Assembly (NCBI GenBank): GCA_012862575.1
Contig: BLSF01000040.1
Coordinates: 124,001 to 188,000 of the forward strand
DNA length: 64,000 nt
Reading direction: 5' to 3'
Origin: Parietichytrium sp. I65-24A
Lineage: Eukaryota; Sar; Bigyra; Thraustochytrida; Thraustochytriidae
Made by a program: the position numbers and the translations under genes. Under the pieces are notes generated by a model. The model was not told the DNA's origin and did not search any database. It saw only the letters and a list, made by a program, of their open reading frames with translations. Below are positions 150-41,920 of this stretch, piece after piece. Each line of letters opens with the position of its first letter. Position 1 is the first letter of the stretch.

Positions 150-1796
150 TTATCCCTCCATATCCGGCATGTTTGGGTCCTTTGGCCGACTGCCGCGACC
201 AGCTCTCATCATCTCGTCAACCAGCAGGAGCTGAGAGGCAAGAACCGTGGAGAGGTGAATAATAGATTTCTTGACGATGGCGCTGTCCCAGATGCCAAGC
301 TTTTCTGGGAGAATAGGCTCGCCGGATACAATATCCAAACCCACTGGGTTCGTAGGATCGCTTTGATAAGCTTCCTCAAGTTTGATGAGTGTATCCTGCA
401 GATCAAAGCCGGAGTTCTCCGCAAGCGACTTTGGGATGATGAGAAGAGCGTCAGCAAACGCCTTCACACCAAGCTTTGCACGGCCCTTTACAGAGTCCAT
501 GACAGTCGTGGTCAGGTGTCGATGAGCAGCGATTTCAAAGGCACCAGCGCCAGCAACGAGATTAGGAAAATCCAGGATGTTTTTCACAGTGCGAAGGCCG
601 TCGCGGATAGCATCCTTGATCTGTGCAATAGAGTGGGGGTTCTGTCCTTTGACAAGGATGGTGCAGCTCTTTGGGTTGCGTGGATCCTCGCAAAAGGTGT
701 ACTTCTCTTCCCCAAGGGTCTCTTCGTACACCATGCCTGCGAATCCAAGCATATCCTCGGTGAGCTCATCGTCGACGCTGTTGATCTGCACTCCACCGCA
801 AGCAAGGGTAAGGCGCTCCATATTTCTCCTTTTGGCGCGGCGGAGGCCAAGAATGCCCTCCTTGGCGAGCATGTCGAGACTTGGCGGGTCAATACCTTTT
901 TGGTTGACGACCATGAACGTGGTGTCAGGGTGATCCTCACAGATCTTGCGCTTGAACTCGATGATTCGTTTCACCTTGTCATCAGTAAACTTGCGTTCGG
1001 CAACAACCATTTCCTCACGTTCCTTCGCTGTCTTGTACATAAAGTTGGAGGTAACTTCACTCTTCTCATACTCGAGAGAGACATTCAAGGTCATGATCCA
1101 TACGTTCTTCATCTTGCGAGGCATATCAGGGTGGCGGGCGCCATGATCCATGACAAGGCCGCGTACCAAGCGTGTTTCCAAGTCTAGCTTGTGCTGCATG
1201 TGAAGAATCTCCACCATGTGGAGGTCAATAGTCTCGCCAGGAACACGAACGCACAGGACTGCATCCACAACGTATTCGGTCAGCTTCTCCACAATCTCCG
1301 GGCGTAGTTTTGTCTGCAGCGTTGTGCGAGCAACGTTGCACAGCTGTTCGCGATCCTCGGCGAGTTCAGGGACATTCTTTGCAAAGCTATCGAGAAACTC
1401 CATCACCTCCTTTTTCGCGACGTCGAAGCCGTCAACGATAACGCGAGGATGCAGACCTTCACTCATAAATCTATCTGCCTGCTTCAAGAGCTCACCGGTG
1501 AGAATAACAGTGGAGGTGGATCCGTCTCCCACGGTTTCGTCGGTTGCGGTCGCAGTTCTGGCAATTAGAGTTGCGGTAGGATGTTGAATCTGCATCTCGT
1601 GCAGCAAGGTGTTTCCGTCCTTGGTGAGCTTGATTTGCCCGGCACCACCAACGAGCATCTTGAGTGTTCCCTTCGGACCAAGGTTGCTCTTGAGCACCTC
1701 TTGAAGGCCTTTTGCTGCCGCCATGTTGATCATAAGCGCCTGAGACTTGCTCACATGCTCGGCGTTGGGGTTGATGAGCTCCAATGAGGACGACAT
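150..1796 (-). CDS. CCT6: T-complex protein 1 subunit zeta (CCT6)
   Basis: Complete 548-residue group II chaperonin subunit, the normal CCT6 length, in one exon from ATG at 1796 to a stop at 150. It should occupy one position per ring of the hetero-oligomeric cytosolic TRiC/CCT complex, which folds actin, tubulin and other proteins with ATP. Visible family motifs: [10 protein letters not shown] near residue 40, [11 protein letters not shown] near 58, the nucleotide-binding GDGST near 90, the apical stretch [18 protein letters not shown] near 312, and GAGAFE near 412 where many subunits have GGGA. The N-terminus ([14 protein letters not shown]) and the IWDSAIVK segment near the C-terminus are typical of the zeta subunit. 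It lies divergent to UBA5, 2.2 kb away. Identification is firm. Confidence 0.96.
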
Positions 1797-1987
1797 GGTT
1801 GCCTGTCTCTTTTTCTTCTTCTCTTTCCCTTCCGGGTCACACGCAGAAAGCTGTGACTGACTGGCGAAAGGCCGATCTCAAGTCTCCTTCTGGTACGTGT
1901 ACCTGGCGAGCGTCGGGACGGATGGCGCACTGCTGCCTGGCTGGTCAGCTCTTGCTTGCGTTGTTGGCGTCGGCGGCTCTGGAGAAT

Positions 1988-2073
1988 GCGATTTGCGCTT
2001 TGCGCTTTGCGATTTGCGATTTGCGATTTGCGATTTGCGAGGGACGATGGACGATGGACGATGGACGATGGAC
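1988..2073. repeat. Two adjacent heptamer tandem repeats
   Basis: From 1988 to 2040 the sequence repeats a 7-bp unit, TTTGCGA with TTTGCGC variants, about seven times. From 2042 to 2073 a different 7-bp unit, GGACGAT, repeats about four and a half times. Both lie about 200-270 bp upstream of the CCT6 start. Function unknown; slippage-type microsatellites. Confidence 0.9.
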
Positions 2074-3752
2074 GGCGTTGGAGTTGACGCGCGTTGGTGG
2101 AGCTACCAGAGCTACCGGGCGAGCGGCAGAATCATGCATAATCATGCAGACTCTCTCGTAGCGAACGTTAGGTTGGAGCCAAATTTCGAATGAGCTTGGC
2201 GCTTTCCCTCTGATCCTACGGCAACGCCTAGCTGCAGTAGACCTTCGCTATCGGCACGAATAATCCAAAACCTCTAGAGGAGGGTCCCTATGGCGATGGG
2301 TAGGGTCTGCCACGCTGCCGGTGCATAGAGGATCCTAAGATTCTCACTGGTCGTGCGTTGTGGGACAGATCTGGAAGCATAGTGAACAACAGCGAACTAT
2401 CTTTTCAAGGAGAAAAACCGTAGCCTAAGAAGGTTGTAGCTTGAGGTGGAGTGACCAACGGCCGAACAACGAGCACAAACTTGTTCCTGAACAGCCATGA
2501 ACAATACAGGTAGCGCTACTACTGGGGTACTATTGTGACTGGTAACAGTGGTGTTGTTACCAGAATCTTTCCAATATTGTTAGCACTTTACTAACACCGA
2601 ATTTTGTAATTTTGTTCTGATTGTTCGTGTTTCTGGAGTATTACCCTAAACCTAGTCTATGCATATGCGGATCGCTCTGCGTTGGTCCCCGAGGTGATGA
2701 CAGTGATGACAGCGCTGGCTTGATGTGCTTGCGGGGGCTGCCCTCGCCATTGAGAGCATTGATGGATTGACGCTCTTGAGACCTGAATCGACAAGTTTCA
2801 AACTTGAGGTCCGTGCAGTGGCTTGCGAACAAAGTGCCTTCATCCTGAAGGTGCGTCCTTCTACGATTTCTAGTATGTTGACAAAATCGATGAGAGACCA
2901 CACGCGGTCCGAGTACCTCCTGTTTCTCGGGTATCGATGCCTTCGTTATAAGTACCCACTCAACTGGGGTTTTAGGTTTGAGAAGAATTTGCGCAAAGAA
3001 TTACAAGTTTCTCGCAGCTCGAGGCTCTCAAGTCGGAAGAATTTCAGTTCAGAATTCAGAAATTCGGCCGACCGAGGCGGGTTCTTTTCTTTACGCTATA
3101 AGAAGTAGTAGCCACCAAAAACCTTCAAAATTGAATTATCTTGCTCGCGGCAAGTTTGTCAAGCCACGTAGAGCCTTGGTGATGCCGACAAGCCCAAGAA
3201 GGAGATTCAAGAGCCGAGCTCTGGGAAGAAAGACTTCTTTGCAAGGTAACGGCTGTTCTGACCTACGGAACTTCTTCGCGTTGCCAGCTGTGCGACCAAA
3301 TAGCAGCCATTATGTCTAATTAATAGCATTTCCAAGTCTACTTTGCCACGCTTCAGCACCAGAGTCCGAGGGGGCTGACTAAACTCTTTTTCCTGAAGGA
3401 AGAAATCATCTGCGGCCAACCAAGCGATGCAGTACTAAGAGTTCATAAATCACAGATCCCCTGCTGTGGCAGGTTGCTTTAAATCTGATTTGCCACCCAG
3501 TACACGCATTCGACTTGGAACTGCGTTTGGCTAGGTTGCTTTCCAGACAACTTGAACCGTGGATCAAGGTACAGCGATGCTCTCAATTTGTTCCTAAATT
3601 TTTCCATCAAATTCGTTTACTCCGCGCTGGAGTGGGCTGCAAGCGCTTGCGGTTGCTATGGAGTAAATTTCGGGTTCCAGCATGTTCCAGTTGGTTTCTG
3701 ACAACTTGGCCTGGTAGATCTGGTAGATTAGAAAGAACTCTTCGAGGTGTAT

Positions 3753-3835
3753 GGTACCAGGTACTCAGTACCAAACACTAGTTCAGTACAATTTACTGAG
3801 CACAGTGTACACTACCCCGTACTGACAGTGAGTAC
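3753..3835. repeat. GTAC-rich short palindrome cluster
   Basis: A dense run of GTAC-centred words (TGGTACCAGGTACTCAGTAC, then CAGTAC, GTGTACAC, CGTACTG and GAGTACAC) 200-290 bp upstream of the UBA5 start. Very similar clusters recur at many other non-coding positions in this window. It could be a dispersed regulatory word or a repeat relic. Confidence 0.5.
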
Positions 3836-4039
3836 ACTAAGCAGCAAGATGATAGAATGATTCTGTTGTGACAGTGAGCGCAGAGAGCGCAGTGTAGCCT
3901 CGCAGCGCTTCCGGCGCCGTTCAAATCGAGCGCGAGTCAATCCTGCATCCGAGCGGACAGTCCGCGAGCCCACTTCCAAATCGTCACTGCGCTACAGCGC
4001 TAGATAGGGCGGCCAAGAAGGAGTAGGTGACCAGCGGCA

Positions 4040-30610: not shown

Positions 30611-30898
30611 CTGCTGCCCGCACACTTGCGTAGGATTCCGCCGTAATTAGGACTCACTGTCAGCCCGCGAGCTATAGTAACGTCGAACAGCTGTGTTATG
30701 AGCGGACTGTGCTCTGTGGAGACACTTCGGACATCGCAGCTAGCCTGTCGTCAGTCAAGTCAGTCAGAACGAAAGGAGCTGCAAGGTGGACCTGCTCGCA
30801 GCTTGAAAAATCCCGGCTGTTGAAGTTGGAGAGCCAGCGGCGCTTTACTTTTGCTTTGCTCTTGCTTTGCTTTCGCTTTTGCTCTTTAACTTTTTTGC

Positions 30899-31284
30899 TT
30901 TTGCTCTTGCTCTTGCTCTTGCTCTTGCTCTTGCTCTTGCTCTTGCTCTTGCTCTTGCTCTTGCTCTTGCTCTTGCTCTTGCTCTTGCTCTTGCTCTTGC
31001 TCTTGCTCTTGCTCTTGCTCTTGCTCTTGCTCTTGCTCTTGCTCTTGCTCTTGCTCTTGCTCTTGCTCTTGCTCTTGCTCTTGCTCTTGCTCTTGCTCTT
31101 GCTCTTGCTCTTGCTCTTGCTCTTGCTCTTGCTCTTGCTCTTGCTCTTGCTCTTGCTCTTGCTCTTGCTCTTGCTCTTGCTCTTGCTCTTGCTCTTGCTC
31201 TTGCTCTTGCTCTTGCTCTTGCTCTTGCTCTTGCTCTTGCTCTTGCTCTTGCTCTTGCTCTTGCTCTTGCTCTTGCTCTTGCTC
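30899..31284. repeat. CTTGCT hexamer array, about 64 copies
   Basis: About 386 bp of an apparently perfect 6-bp repeat (TTGCTC register), flanked upstream by degenerating TTTGCTTTTGCT units and downstream by GCTCTGCTCTG. The unit contains no stop in any frame on either strand. Long artificial frames therefore arise (Leu runs and Leu-Ala on plus, Gln-Glu on minus); none is a believable protein. It lies about 70-450 bp upstream of the SDR start and abuts a splice-acceptor-like sequence. Confidence 0.97.
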
Positions 31285-31351
31285 TGCTCTGCTTTGCAGG
31301 TGAAGGTCGCGCGCGGAAGATATCTGTATCCTTCTAACTATTTGTACAACG

Positions 31352-32143
31352 ATGAGCGCGTCGCTGGCGGGAGCACTGAGCGGGCGGCTGGGCATTGTTT
31401 CCGGGGCTGGCAGCGGAATCGGTCGTGCAGTTGCGCTGGCGCTGTCCCGCAGCGGCGCCAGGGTGGGCTGCGTGGACGTGGACCTGGCAGCGGCCCATGA
31501 CACCGCGGTCTTCGTGAACACGCGCATCGAAGCGGCCGGGTTGGGCGGCGCGGCGCTGGCGCTGCAGGCAGACGTTGGCGACGCAGATGCCGTGCGCGCA
31601 GCGGTGTCCAGGGCCCAGGAGCGGCTGGGTGGCACCTTGACGTGCGGCGTCAACTGCGCGGGGGTGACTGCTGACGCGTTCATGCACAAGATGACGGAGG
31701 AACAGTGGGATCGAGTACTGCGCGTCAACCTCAAGGGCACGTTCAACTTTACGCAGAGTGTGGCCGCTGCCATGATGGAGGCTGGCGTGCCAGAGGCCGG
31801 GGGCTCGGTGGTCAATATCGCGAGCATCATCGGCAAGGTGGGCAACTTGGGCCAGGCAAACTACGCTGCGTCCAAGGCAGGCGTGATCGCGTTCAGCAAG
31901 ACGGCCGCCAAGGAGCTGGCAAGGAAGAATATTCGCGTCAACGTCGTACTGCCCGGGTTTATCGACACGCCGATGGCGCGGGCCGTTCCAGAAAAGGTTC
32001 TCAACAAGATGATCGAGCAGATACCGGCAGGGCGACTGGGCAGGCCTGAGGAGATCGCCGACACATGTTTGTTTTTGTGCAGCGACATGTCCACGTTCAT
32101 AACAGGCGCGCAGATCGAGGTCACTGGCGGGCAGTATATGTAA
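31352..32143 (+). CDS. Short-chain dehydrogenase/reductase, HSD17B8/FabG-like
   Basis: 263 residues, one exon, from ATG 31352. Classical SDR expected to reduce 3-ketoacyl or oxidise hydroxysteroid-type substrates. The coenzyme motif GAGSGIG is at 18-24, and an Asp after the second strand (VDVD, 41-44) favours NAD(H). NCAGV is near 101-105, the catalytic Ser158 is in VVNIAS, and Tyr171/Lys175 are in YAASK. The segment KVGNLGQANYAASKAGVIAF, the downstream VLPGFIDTPMA and the end EVTGGQYM resemble human HSD17B8, which pairs with CBR4 as the mitochondrial 3-ketoacyl-ACP reductase. FabG of bacterial or plastid type is similar, so assignment between them is uncertain. The gene is GC-rich relative to its flanks. 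Confidence 0.88.
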   Translation: MSASLAGALSGRLGIVSGAGSGIGRAVALALSRSGARVGCVDVDLAAAHDTAVFVNTRIEAAGLGGAALALQADVGDADAVRAAVSRAQERLGGTLTCGVNCAGVTADAFMHKMTEEQWDRVLRVNLKGTFNFTQSVAAAMMEAGVPEAGGSVVNIASIIGKVGNLGQANYAASKAGVIAFSKTAAKELARKNIRVNVVLPGFIDTPMARAVPEKVLNKMIEQIPAGRLGRPEEIADTCLFLCSDMSTFITGAQIEVTGGQYM

Positions 32144-36474: not shown

Positions 36475-38248
36475 GCACAATCAATTCAGATTGTTGGCAT
36501 GATTGCGAAACATGTGACCGCGCATGTTTGCTCTTAAGCTGACTCTGAAAACATCTTCCATGATTTTGACACCGACGCTCCCAACACAGCGGGAAGGGGC
36601 GACCCCACCGTCCATCAAATCGAAGGAATGAGCTTTTTCATGTAAGTTATTTCTTCTGAGAGCGGACGAAGAAAGACTGTCGTCATGCGATTCTTTGAAC
36701 GAAGAAAACATCGATGGGCTAGAGCTATTGAACGGCTAAACCGGACACTTATGCAAGTTCCGACTATAGAACATGTTCTATTACCTTCACTACCTTCATG
36801 ACCAACCCTATTGAAACGCCCTTCCCTCACACCACTTCCCTTACTCCCCTCACAGGAAACGCCTCACAAAAGGATCCCCTCTCGGAGTAATCCCTCAAAG
36901 CGCCCTGTCCTTCCGGAGAAACCATTCTTCCGAACTTCCTTTGGCGAACTAGTGCAACACTATGCCGCACTTTCCATTTTCACTCCCGCGCCATTCGCGC
37001 CATGACTCATTGTCGAGACTAACATAATACTCAAGTATTCAGTCGAAAGTCACCTTTCTCTTTTTCAGTTCGTCTGAGCCACCAACAACGCCGACAGCCT
37101 GGCGCCAGTTAGATTAATAAAGCTTCTTTTCATCGAGGTTGAGTGCTTACTCAGACCGATATTCGCTTGTCAAGCAAGGAGGCGGAAGCATTTGTGCGAA
37201 ACGAGTAAGTCCATTCACAGTCAATCTCAAAATCAGTCGAGGACATTATCAGTTTTCATTATCCCTTTCTTACCCCACGCCGCGAAAGAGAGATGATTCA
37301 GAGATCAGAGCAGAGATTCAGAACTCAAGGGCAATCGACTCCTGAGTCAGAGTGTCGAGCTCAAGCACTCAATGCGCGCAGGTACCAGTAGGGCCACAGC
37401 TGCCCGCGGCTCAAGCTGCAAAGCGCGGCATTTGGCCAGAAAAGCCTAACTTGTCCGGTACCGGATTCTGTGACTTGAACTCACGAGTCCAGGATAGCGC
37501 AGTGTTAGCACCAAGTACTATAGTCGTATTTACTCAATTCTCTAATTAAACTGTATGCTCGAAAGAGCGTGCGTGCTATTGCTCTTCGAGAGCTCGTGCC
37601 AGATGTGACATGCGAAGCGAAGAACATGCTCTTTCAGATTGCTGGCGCCTTATCCCCTGCCGAGAATTCCTCAATAGTTTAAACTCCTGATTTTTCGTTC
37701 GGACGATTTTCTACCAAGTTTGTCCAGAGTCCAGAAAAAGCTGCGACAATTTTGCTGAATTCTGTTCTGTTCTGGTGATGGTTTTCTTTCAAACCAAGTC
37801 CAATCCTCATGGAAAACTACCTTTTCAGAGATAGGGAATCCTCTTTGTTCCTGGAGCAGTCAACTAAGGGCAGCTAGCACTAGGTACCTGAAACCATTAC
37901 CGACTCCTAAGAACTCCCGAAAGGATGGATCAATGAACATCAGTGAACAACCATGAACACGGACTGCTTAAGAGCACGCTATCTGGATTGTTAACAATAA
38001 TCCCTAGTCAGTCCGCCGTCCTGCTAGGTAGGAGTACCTGGAGTACCTGGAGTACCTTGAGGCTGGGCTGGACGGTGGACGGACACTACTGACCCCATAA
38101 ATGACTCCTTCTGAAGCTGCTAAATTGGCTATGTGAAAAGGTGAAATTTGCAAGCGCGAGGTGGAAAGAGGGGCAAGAGTGGCAAGAGATGGCAAGAGAG
38201 GATAAGAGAGGGCAAAGGAACAAGGAGTCATTGGAGTACTGCCTGTGA

Positions 38249-38270
38249 GTACCAGTACCGGTACTCGTAC
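38249..38270. repeat. GTAC palindrome cluster upstream of GPx
   Basis: GTACCAGTACCGGTACTCG plus a final GTAC: four GTAC cores in 22 bp, 105-126 bp before the GPx start. AGTACCTGG is repeated three times at 38033-38055. Possible promoter element. Confidence 0.5.
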
Positions 38271-38374
38271 ACAGTGCCAGGGTAGAAGAAGTAGAAGAGG
38301 TGCAAAATGGCGTAAAGCAGACACCAAACGAAGAGAGCTGTGGACAGGATAGCGGGCACAGCGGCTGGGGCAAG

Positions 38375-39037
38375 ATGAACTTTTTGCGTGGGCTGCTCAC
38401 GCAGAGCACGGACGTCAAGTCCATCTATGAGCTCTCTGCGAAGAACTTGCACAAGACGGAAACGATCGCCATGGAGCAGTTCCGAGGCAAAATTATGCTC
38501 GTGGTGAACGTCGCGAGCAAGTGAGGTTTGACCAAGCGCGAGTACACCCAGCTCGAGCAGCTTCATGAGAGATACCACAGCCAGGGCCTTGAGATCCTCG
38601 GGTTCCCTTGCAACCAGTTTGGCGGCCAGGAGCCGGGCACTCCTGATGAAATTGAGAAATTCGTCACTGAAAAGTTTGGCGTCAAGTTCCGTATGATGGA
38701 GAAGATCGACGTGAACGGTCCAGACGCGCATCCTATCTTCACATATCTGAAGAACCAAAACTATGGCAACATGTTCGGAGTGATCAAGTGGAATTTTACA
38801 AAGTTTCTCATCAACCGCGAGGGCAAGCCGGTTCAGCGTCTCGAGCCCGCCACTGAGGCGAACGGGATGATTCCTTTCATCGAGGATATTCTTCAAGGTG
38901 GCACGGGAGAGAAACCCGCGTCAGGCAGTACCGTTGAGCCCGCGGCTACCTCTGCAAGCGCAGAGAAGGACACGTCGTGCTCTGCCTCTGGAGAATGCGC
39001 TGCTCCTCGCAAAGACAAGCAGGAGAACAAGCTCTGA
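38375..39037 (+). CDS. Selenocysteine-containing glutathione peroxidase
   Basis: ATG 38375 to TGA 39035-39037, 220 residues if the in-frame TGA at 38522-38524 is read as selenocysteine (Sec50). That TGA sits exactly where the peroxidatic residue lies: NVASK-U-GLT, the GPx signature. The other tetrad residues are intact: Gln81 in FPCNQFGGQEPG, and Trp139-Asn140 in IKWNFTKFL. The frame and similarity continue without break after the TGA. The enzyme reduces H2O2 or lipid hydroperoxides using thiols; the single compact domain without an oligomerisation loop resembles GPx4 and algal or plant GPx. A C-terminal extension of about 45 residues, rich in Ser/Ala/Lys with a CSASGEC pair, is unusual. No signal peptide is evident. 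A candidate SECIS follows in the 3' UTR. Confidence 0.93.
38522..38524 (+). other. UGA selenocysteine codon (Sec50) of glutathione peroxidase
   Basis: In-frame TGA between AAG (Lys) and GGT (Gly) inside NVASK-U-GLT. In GPx families this site is always Sec or Cys. No splice solution that removes it keeps the conserved residues on both sides. Confidence 0.9.
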
Positions 39038-39136
39038 GCTAGTTGCGGTCGTTGCGTCCAGTTTTAATTTTCAGAACCGCAGTGCGTGTTCTTGGTTGGG
39101 CGATGGAGTTGGATTTTGATGAGTTAGCTCGCAATC

Positions 39137-39205
39137 ATGACGGCTGGACGTGGAAAGTATTTTGATCTCGACGCCTTGGCTCGAGGCTCACGTCTTTGTC
39201 CCGAA
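39137..39205 (+). promoter_or_regulatory. Candidate SECIS element (type II-like) in the GPx 3' UTR
   Basis: It starts 100 nt after the stop codon. ATGA (39137-39140) faces CGAA (39202-39205), allowing the tandem G-A pairs of the SECIS core. Twelve bases after ATGAC an AAA (39154-39156) is unpaired. Helix II is GGACGTGG (39146-39153) with TCACGTCT (39188-39195), plus GG/CC next to the core across an internal loop. Above the AAA, CTCGA (39167-39171) pairs with TCGAG (39181-39185) as an extra apical helix. Spacing fits, but the internal loops are larger than usual and helix I is weak. Confidence 0.38.
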
Positions 39206-40917
39206 TCAAAGTGGGAACGTGTCGAAGTCGCCGCGCGGAACATAGTTGGTATCTCTCCCGCTGCGAACGGTTGTCGATCACAGTTGAAATTTCCACTGCA
39301 AGCTGCCTCTCAGCGTCCAACATGCCTCGTCCGATTCAGACACGCGACTCTTTTTTTTTTTTTTCCTCATCCAACATAAACCATCCATGATAGTTTGTTT
39401 GCTTTTCACTCTGCTCCATTGTTCTCTTTGACTGTGAACTATGCTCATAGTGTCAGTTGCAAAACACGACGTTGAACGTTTTCTTGCTTGCTTCGATGTC
39501 GCCAACGTACATCGATCTGTAGTCAGTTGAAGTATTTTTCCTGTGAAGAAGACCTTCAAGCATCGCATTGTTTCCCACAGTTCGAGTGCTGCACCGAGTA
39601 CTAGTACAATTCGAACTTGCAACAGAGAATCCGCAACAAGCGAATCTGCAAACTTTCCCAACCGCCTACCGAATTCTATGGTCTTGTATAGGGCTTGGGT
39701 GGAGGGTCGCGAAGATGTTGCGCGGACAGCAGCGATGCTCTGCTTTTCCGCGTCGCAGGTTTCCCATCCACCACTTCACGGGTCAGGAAGCGTCAAAAAT
39801 CCGCGAGAAAGACTGCGTACTCAGTACTGTCCCGAAGTTGTCTCACCGGCACTGGCTGTACCACCATATCGGTACTCAGTACACCACCGGGATTGATTGA
39901 CTTGCTTGAAAAATAAAATAATTGAGATCTTGTGAAAAGCGCATCTGGCTCAAACCAGAAAGTGCGAAAAGAAAGGAATGATTTCCGTTGCTGGTGAATC
40001 AGGCCCGGTCTTTAAGCACCTGTATTCCTGCATGGGACACTAACGTCGGCACTTTTCCTGTGTCGTAGCAGCCAACGAAAGAGTGAGTGAGCCTTAGAGA
40101 GTTGCTTTTTTCGAAAACAAACCTAATCTGTCATGTGAAGTACTTGCATCCCATCCTCATCTCTTCCGAAACAAGGATAAACAAACCCGGAAACAAAAAT
40201 AACTGTTCTGAAATCTAAATTCTGATTCTGAATTTATTGCTTACTTTCAGAACATGTTCTGAAAAAAAGCGAACAATCAAGTTGAAAGAAAGGTGGCCTA
40301 AACTTGTTGGCTTTTCCTGCTTTCTTCTCGCTCCTTTCGTGTACTACTAGTATTGACCTGTACTCAGAATTCACAATCAGTACTGAGTACCACTACTCTT
40401 TCGCTGTGGAGAGTAAGCGAGTTTGGTAGGCGATTGTTTCATTCCCAAACTGAAAAAAGTAACTTCTTCAGAGTAGCAGGACAAGAAGAAGATGATGATG
40501 AAGAAACAAAAGCACAGCGCCTCCTCTCAGAGCTTCCAGCCCCTTCTCAACGACACCCACAGCAGCCTGCGACTGCGACTGCGAAAGAAAGGAAAGCAGC
40601 AAGCAGACTGCGAAAGAAAAGGCACAAAGGTTTCTTCTCTCGCTCTCTCCACTCCCACCAAAAGACGATTCTGCACATCGCTGAAGGGACGCACTAGTTA
40701 GTACATCCTGTGCAAGTAAGCCAATCGCCACAAACGCCATCGTGATCGCCAGAATCCTGGACTCGACTATGAGTCTCTGGTACGAGCGCGCTGAGAGTAA
40801 AGTGCTGCGTAGCGGGGCATAGCAGGCAGGCTCTTTGGGATTCGCCAAGATGGAGTTGTTGGTTGGTCAGCGATCGCCATATCTTTTCCCTTTTCCCATT
40901 TCCTGTCGGAGTGTCGC

Positions 40918-40978
40918 GAGAATGCGAGAGTGTGAGCATGTGAGAATGCGAGAGTGTGAGAGAATGCGGAAGTGTGAG
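40918..40978. repeat. Imperfect 18-20 bp tandem repeat
   Basis: Three copies of a unit close to GAGAATGCGAGAGTGTGA, the last with one substitution pair, followed by GGGAGGGGTGGG-type sequence. Confidence 0.8.
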
Positions 40979-41920
40979 GGAGGGGTGGGAGGGGTGGGTG
41001 CTGCCGGCGCTCGCCTTTATGTGGCCGCAAGCCGCACATGTGACACTCATAAGTTTACACAGTTTGTCCATTCATGATTAAATCAGCTCGCGAGAGCAAA
41101 ACAACGCAGCGAATACACTCAATCACTCACTCAACATTACTCACCCACGCTTTGCGAGTGCTCTCATTTGTGATTGAAGGTGAGAAAAAAGTGCAGGCGG
41201 GCACGGTGCCACGGTGCGCTACAAGTGAGTGCCCGCAATGCCCACACCACCGGTCCGGGCCGAATCGGCGGTCGTGGACGATCCGTCTACTGACGCTAGA
41301 CTAGAGAACTGTGTTTGACAATGTTTGACATGTGAGTACAGCAAGTACAGTACCAGGTACTCGTAACCACACTGACAGACCCTAAATAGACAGGCTCTTC
41401 TCAGGCTACTCAGGCTTCTCACTTGACGAGCGTCTTCATTCAGGACAAACCCACAAACAAGGCGCGAGAAGCTTACTGCTCGCTACTCACTGCGCTAGCT
41501 GGCACGACAGTGCGAAAGTTGCATTTGGCGGGGTCGACAGAGGCAGAGGCTCTGACGGTATGCCCGACTTTTAGTCTCTCTCTCTTCGTCACTCGCGCAC
41601 TCACTGCTGTTGTCTCGACAGAGCACTCGCTCAAGTGAACCGAGTCCGCACGCTGTTGTCAAGGGCTTGAAGCTGGGGCGGCGGTGAACCACTTGCGGCG
41701 TTTGGTCGTGCTGAGCACCTCGAAAAGGAAAGCAAGCAAGTAGAGTTGTTACAGGTCGAACGGGGCCGAACCAAAGTAAAAGGGGCGCAGCAAGCCTTGA
41801 ACGAGGAGACTCAGACTAGTTGGTGCTGGCCGCGGAGTGTTGAGGCTGATCCTAGCGGTGCAGCATTTGAGCTGGCCGTGAAGGGTGTCTGGATAAAGAA
41901 CAGAGAAACACTGTGAGATA

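What the first reader, a model, noticed from the sequence alone, without database searches (positions are those of the whole stretch)
38375..39037. Selenocysteine glutathione peroxidase with in-frame UGA
Seen: the GPx frame is uninterrupted from 38375 to 39037 except for one TGA (38522-38524), at the peroxidatic position in NVASK-U-GLT. Gln81, Trp139 and Asn140 of the catalytic tetrad are intact. Known: GPx enzymes have Sec or Cys there. Automatic annotation would truncate this gene at 49 codons or start it after the catalytic residue. It implies the host has the full Sec insertion machinery (tRNA-Sec, SBP2, eEFSec, SPS). The CSASGEC-containing C-terminal extension is an added oddity.
Basis: partly seen in the sequence, partly recalled or inferred. 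Interest (0 to 1): 0.85.

Follow-up and report, generated by a model that had tools for sequence, protein, structure and literature searches.

The report
Ordinary selenocysteine glutathione peroxidase gene
This is a real gene for an antioxidant enzyme whose internal UGA codon is very probably read as selenocysteine, in a protist that carries nearly all of the known selenocysteine machinery; it is a correct but ordinary find of a kind known across eukaryotes.

Summary
The frame 38375-39037 (+) is a complete GPX4-type glutathione peroxidase, interrupted only by TGA at 38522-38524, exactly at the peroxidatic position; Gln81, Trp139 and Asn140 are intact. The genome supports the interpretation. 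The 42.5 Mb assembly holds tRNA-Sec (UCA), SepSecS, selenophosphate synthetase, eEFSec, SBP2 and a weak PSTK candidate. Three further genes have TGA at the expected Sec site: a second GPx, SelT and thioredoxin reductase. A form-2 SECIS candidate starts 99 bases after the stop (39137-39205); the other three genes have similar elements. 0 of 600 shuffles score as well, but an earlier scan of mine did not single it out, Rfam does not find it, and its fold is no more stable than shuffles. The host is a stramenopile, probably a thraustochytrid (inference). Sec-GPx is an established eukaryotic selenoprotein, so this is a new member of a known kind. One oddity remains: the gene also ends in UGA, 99 nt from the SECIS, so decoding of that UGA too is not excluded.

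The parts
38375..39037 (+). Coding sequence of a Sec-containing GPX4-type glutathione peroxidase, 220 residues, unspliced frame
   Evidence: Pfam GSHPx 1.5e-43; PDB phmmer 6.3e-49 to a Schistosoma GPx, 2v1m; fold match to GPX4 structures
38522..38524 (+). In-frame TGA, Sec50, peroxidatic residue
   Evidence: Cys in 20 of the 20 other aligned rows that reach this column (P0027 does not reach it)
38615..38617 (+). Gln81 codon of the catalytic tetrad
38789..38794 (+). Trp139-Asn140 codons of the catalytic tetrad
38897..39034 (+). C-terminal extension (about residues 175-220), no predicted secondary structure; ten-residue blocks from residue 181 on have pLDDT 54-66
38978..38998 (+). CSASGEC motif, Cys202 and Cys208
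39035..39037 (+). Terminal TGA, presumed stop
39038..39067 (+). Nine codons (ASCGRCVQF) and the next in-frame stop TAA; translated only if the terminal UGA were also read
39137..39205 (+). Candidate form-2 SECIS: ATGA 39137-39140; helix II 39142-39144/39198-39200 and 39146-39153/39188-39195; unpaired AAA 39154-39156; mini-stem 39167-39171/39181-39185 (by eye); CGAA 39202-39205
   Evidence: not singled out, not found by Rfam

Best explanation
38375-39037 encodes a GPX4-type glutathione peroxidase of a protist, probably a thraustochytrid, in which UGA codon 50 is decoded as selenocysteine. SBP2 binds a SECIS hairpin in the 3' untranslated region, most likely 39137-39205, and recruits eEFSec with Sec-tRNA(UCA), so the ribosome inserts Sec at codon 50 and terminates at the final UGA. 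The selenolate, held by Gln81, Trp139 and Asn140, reduces (phospho)lipid hydroperoxides and is regenerated by glutathione or a thioredoxin-type reductant. Shown: the frame, its homology, the machinery genes, sister UGA genes, and a candidate SECIS. Inferred: actual decoding, substrates, reductant, and the role of the tail.
For: Frame and tetrad. Coding similarity continues right after the TGA: TKREYTQL is shared with P0027, a 129-residue metagenomic fragment that begins just after the Sec-Gly pair. tRNA-Sec, SepSecS, SelD, eEFSec and SBP2 are present. Independent UGA genes in the same genome: GPx2, SelT, and TrxR ending TGC-TGA-GGT-TAA. SECIS scan: -17.2 in this 3' flank, 0 of 600 shuffles as good (best -16.6), none of 60 one-kb pieces of the window's minus strand as good (best -15.4); -23.0, -21.4 and -16.0 in the other three UGA genes; best -14.3 in six 3' flanks of genes not expected to have one. 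Predicted fold matches GPX4 structures with TMt 0.80-0.90.
Against: Rfam SECIS_1 gave no hit in this region at E <= 10 for the scan of all families and none in the genome at E <= 0.001, where it also missed the three other UGA genes. In my earlier, narrower scan the best score in this flank (18.3) lay within the background (90th percentile 18.2, maximum 19.5) and the 39137 element, paired differently, had 16.0; the ranges were widened after I saw the SelT element by eye. The region is no more stable than shuffled sequence (z +0.86 for 131 nt, -0.33 for 79 nt); helix I is not resolved. Four other places in 305,526 scanned strand-bases score at or below -17.2, and the SelT score alone would not stand out. 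PSTK is weak. No expression data.
Confidence: 0.94

Rival explanations
1. The TGA lies in a short intron starting at CAA|GTGAGG and is removed by splicing.
For: AA|GTGAGG resembles a splice donor (sequence; consensus recalled), and an annotated Achlya GPx model skips the same residues.
Against: Removal would delete the peroxidatic residue and part of the following helix, where TKREYTQL is shared with P0027. The frame stays open through the region. The machinery and a SECIS candidate are present.
Confidence: 0.02
2. The gene is a pseudogene, or the TGA is a point mutation or assembly error of a Cys-GPx.
For: Cys-GPx genes also exist in this genome (L002, L003), and Cys is the residue at this position in the other aligned GPx.
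Against: The rest of the frame is intact, with the tetrad conserved. Three other genes show TGA at the known Sec positions of their families (positions recalled). A SECIS candidate follows the stop.
Confidence: 0.03
3. The organism reassigns UGA to an ordinary amino acid.
For: Four genes with in-frame TGA.
Against: 3 of 11 other window ORFs that I picked end in TGA, and this gene does too. Trp139 is TGG. The four in-frame TGAs found sit at Sec positions, and tRNA-Sec exists.
Confidence: 0.01

Closest known systems
GPX4 / phospholipid hydroperoxide glutathione peroxidase (human and mouse GPX4; Schistosoma mansoni GPx 2v1m, 2wgr)
   Same: Single compact GPx domain, Sec site, tetrad, 42-48% identity over the domain, no Cys in the helix after FPCNQF (the role of that Cys is recalled)
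   Different: A tail of about 46 residues with CSASGEC, and UGA used as the stop as well
Sec-GPx of algae, stramenopile algae included
   Same: Sec forms of GPX, SELENOU, SELENOT and TXNRD are in more than half of 36 algal genomes (PMC7539508, passages); three of these four families have a UGA member here
   Different: The main text holds 0 occurrences of Aurantiochytrium, Schizochytrium or Labyrinthul; no other difference was shown
Oomycete GPx (Achlya hypogyna P0002)
   Same: Best listed database hit, 231 bits; the annotated model omits the Sec position
   Different: Two GPx units in tandem, no matching tail

Membership tests
Eukaryotic selenoprotein | In-frame UGA at a position occupied by Cys in homologues | tested here: met
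   (Cys in 20 of 20 other rows that reach the column)
Eukaryotic selenoprotein | SECIS element in the 3' UTR | tested here: met
   Candidate at 39137-39205, 0 of 600 shuffles as good; with reservations: an earlier scan did not single it out, Rfam is negative, folding z is not significant
Eukaryotic selenoprotein | Host has tRNA-Sec, SepSecS, SPS, eEFSec, SBP2 | tested here: met
Eukaryotic selenoprotein | Host has PSTK | tested here: inconclusive
   One candidate, 44 bits, below the 382-bit cut-off; frame of 343 aa with a P-loop-like GIPAAGKST
Eukaryotic selenoprotein | Sec in the mature protein | not testable with these tools
   needs 75Se labelling or mass spectrometry
Glutathione peroxidase (PF00255) | GSHPx domain over the curated cut-off | tested here: met
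   147 bits against 27
GPX4-type | Tetrad Sec/Cys-Gln-Trp-Asn | tested here: met
GPX4-type | No resolving Cys in the helix after the FPCNQF motif | tested here: met
   Val where 19 of the 22 aligned rows have Cys; P0027 and P0069 also have Val (rows read by eye)
GPX4-type | Phospholipid hydroperoxide and glutathione specificity | not testable with these tools
   enzyme assay needed

The most novel reading that the evidence does not exclude
The terminal UGA (39035-39037), 99 nt before the SECIS, is also partly decoded as Sec. That would give a second form with the tail U-ASCGRCVQF, and the tail's Cys202, Cys208, Sec221 and CGRC would form a built-in redox relay for Sec50.
Probability: 0.05. Interest if true: 0.6.

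Novelty: new member of a known kind. Interest (0 to 1): 0.2.

Why it matters
It adds a well supported selenoprotein gene, and a set of at least four UGA genes with their machinery, to what is probably a labyrinthulid genome; three paper searches (listings only) showed no selenoprotein study of that group in the open-access library. It also illustrates how gene models lose the catalytic residue. It does not change what is known about Sec decoding or GPx chemistry.

Tried and rejected
Rfam scan of 36500-41500 and genome search with SECIS_1: no SECIS hit; not taken as absence, since says that nothing rang anywhere, controls included. The first two SECIS scans used narrower spacing: one search gave nothing for GPx2 and SelT and one candidate at 39137 paired to 39182; one search found the GPx2 element clearly (27.3, background maximum 19.5), missed the SelT element, and gave the window flank 18.3 at 39116 and 16.0 at 39137, both within background. 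The third, wider scan, made after I saw the SelT element by eye, is the one used. MAFFT alignment of three SECIS elements was poor and a second one put the helix out of register, so no covariance model was built and no leave-one-out test was done. Search for the tail among 5.8 billion proteins: 19 candidates, none at E <= 1; as the query part also held some conserved GPx residues, this search looks insensitive. Blastn against plasmids gave 11 records, the seven genera named all bacterial, covering at most about a third of the gene in the five rows listed, and was of no use. The Sep15/SelM-like gene (L012) showed no SECIS (best -8.6) and its Sec status was left open. UBA5 search to name the host: the best hit is labelled Mesvir and is not a stramenopile; the similarity of N- and C-terminal extensions to P0128 and P0131, by eye, points to thraustochytrids. 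The Cys-GPx L002 flank was not used as a SECIS control.

Full report
The observation. The plus-strand frame 38375-39037 reads MNFLRGLLTQ...NVASK-U-GLTKREYTQL...CNQFGGQEPG...IKWNFTKF...CSASGEC...ENKL-stop with one internal TGA, codon 50, at 38522-38524. Pfam assigns GSHPx at 1.5e-43. In an alignment of 22 GPx proteins (the query and 21 hits that I chose from the 120 listed) the tetrad partners are invariant, and the position of Sec50 is Cys in 20 of the 20 other rows that reach it.

What it is. Sequence search of solved structures puts Schistosoma GPx 2v1m first (6.3e-49), with plant GPx5 and GPX4 entries among the next. An AlphaFold2 model (mean pLDDT 81.6, pTM 0.75; ten-residue blocks between residues 11 and 180 are 64-98, from 181 on 54-66) matches GPX4 structures at TMt 0.80-0.90 and Schistosoma GPx at 0.90. 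The helix that carries the resolving cysteine in thioredoxin-dependent Cys-GPx (recalled) has Val here, where 19 of 22 rows have Cys, as expected for a Sec-GPX4-type enzyme.

Is UGA decoded as Sec? The host genome (G000, 42,540,916 bases, 172 contigs) was searched. tRNA-Sec: 74.3 bits, gathering 47, anticodon UCA. SepSecS: 3.2e-123. SelD: 4.5e-82, over its cut-off, in its Cys form as I read the motif, fused to a pyridine nucleotide-disulphide oxidoreductase domain. eEFSec domain III: 8.4e-28. SBP2: one of seven L7Ae matches, in a frame of 897 aa, hits the SECIS binding protein 2 chain of PDB 7zjw at 8.2e-21 as the only hit. PSTK: one candidate, 44 bits, far below the cut-off.

Sister selenoproteins. 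Of four GPx matches, two hold one TGA: the window gene and L004, NVAST-U-GTT. Of two Rdx matches, L009 is SelT-like with CTG-U-GYG and L008 has Cys. Of seven matches to the thioredoxin/glutathione reductase model, L013 has one TGA and ends TGC-TGA-GGT-TAA. The SelT and TrxR Sec motifs are recalled.

SECIS. A scan for a TGA/GA core, an unpaired AA or CC, and a pairing helix finds 39137-39205 as the best place in the 3' flank, score -17.2; the best of 60 one-kb pieces of the window's minus strand is -15.4. Of 600 dinucleotide shuffles of the first 500 bases after the stop, 0 score as well (best -16.6). The other UGA genes give -23.0 (GPx2), -21.4 (TrxR) and -16.0 (SelT), starting about 86, 187 and 192 nt after their stops (positions). 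Six 3' flanks of genes not expected to carry a SECIS (Cys-GPx L003, Cys-Rdx L008, SepSecS, SelD, eEFSec, SBP2) give -5.4, -13.0, -13.3, -6.8, -9.7 and -14.3. Over 305,526 scanned strand-bases eight rows score at or below -17.2: three belong to GPx2 and TrxR, one to this gene, four are elsewhere, so about one chance match per 75 kb, and a match within 170 bases of this stop by chance is roughly 0.2%. By eye all four elements have AAA followed by an apical mini-stem, the form-2 layout (recalled). Against this: the earlier scan with narrower limits put this flank within background and the limits were widened after the SelT element was seen; Rfam finds none of the four at E <= 0.001 genome-wide; the window element does not fold better than shuffles; the SelT score alone does not stand out; helix I is unclear. 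I read the element as real with about 80% confidence (85% before this check, lowered); the Sec reading does not rest on it alone and is unchanged.

Two UGAs in one mRNA. The final stop is UGA as well; the three other Sec genes end in UAA, while 3 of 11 other window ORFs that I picked end in UGA. The SECIS starts 99 nt after the stop. A review gives a least UGA-SECIS distance of about 51-111 nt (PMC8659212, passages), so decoding of the final UGA is neither excluded nor indicated; it would add ASCGRCVQF before UAA. No relative with a similar tail was found, by a search that looks insensitive.

Known or new. Sec-GPx is one of the most widespread Sec-containing families in algae (PMC7539508, passages). 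SPS2 is scattered across stramenopiles, and NADH-dehydrogenase-like SPS fusions occur in many protists, explained there by transfer from bacteria (PMC4561486, passages). Searches for selenoprotein or selenocysteine with thraustochytrid, Aurantiochytrium and Labyrinthul (listings and abstract starts seen) showed no dedicated study of labyrinthulids in this open-access library; searches with stramenopiles and oomycete led to the algal survey. The host name is inference: UBA5 has oomycete and other stramenopile hits, though its best hit is labelled Mesvir, and one MMETSP0199 hit whose organism label is cut at 'Thr' shares its extensions by eye.

Verdict. Confirmed, well supported, ordinary.

Noticed in passing
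L002 (G000:C17:221919-225242), frame 1396-2064 +: A Cys-type GPx carries a ShK domain (PF01549, 36.4 bits) right after the Pfam GSHPx match and before its WN motif. A ShKT fusion of SELENOM in Emiliania is mentioned in PMC7539508 (passage).
   Followed up: partly
L004 (G000:C15:244869-248039), minus strand: The second UGA-containing GPx appears to have Asp in place of the tetrad Gln (FPCNDFGFQE, read by eye over an intron). Cys-GPx L003 reads SNDF at the same place.
   Followed up: partly
L007 (G000:C58:270167-274108), 1390-3894 minus: Selenophosphate synthetase, Cys form by eye, fused to a Pyr_redox_2 domain, a fusion class known in protists (PMC4561486, passages).
   Followed up: yes
P0002, Achlya hypogyna: An oomycete record with two tandem GPx units in which the Sec position is lost from both (one starts after it, one skips it), probably misannotated Sec-GPx.
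   Followed up: partly
window 30886-31500: A long low-complexity run, read as Leu on the plus strand and as Glu-Gln on the minus strand, more than 100 codons, just before a short-chain-dehydrogenase-like frame at 31352-32143 (family name recalled).
   Followed up: no
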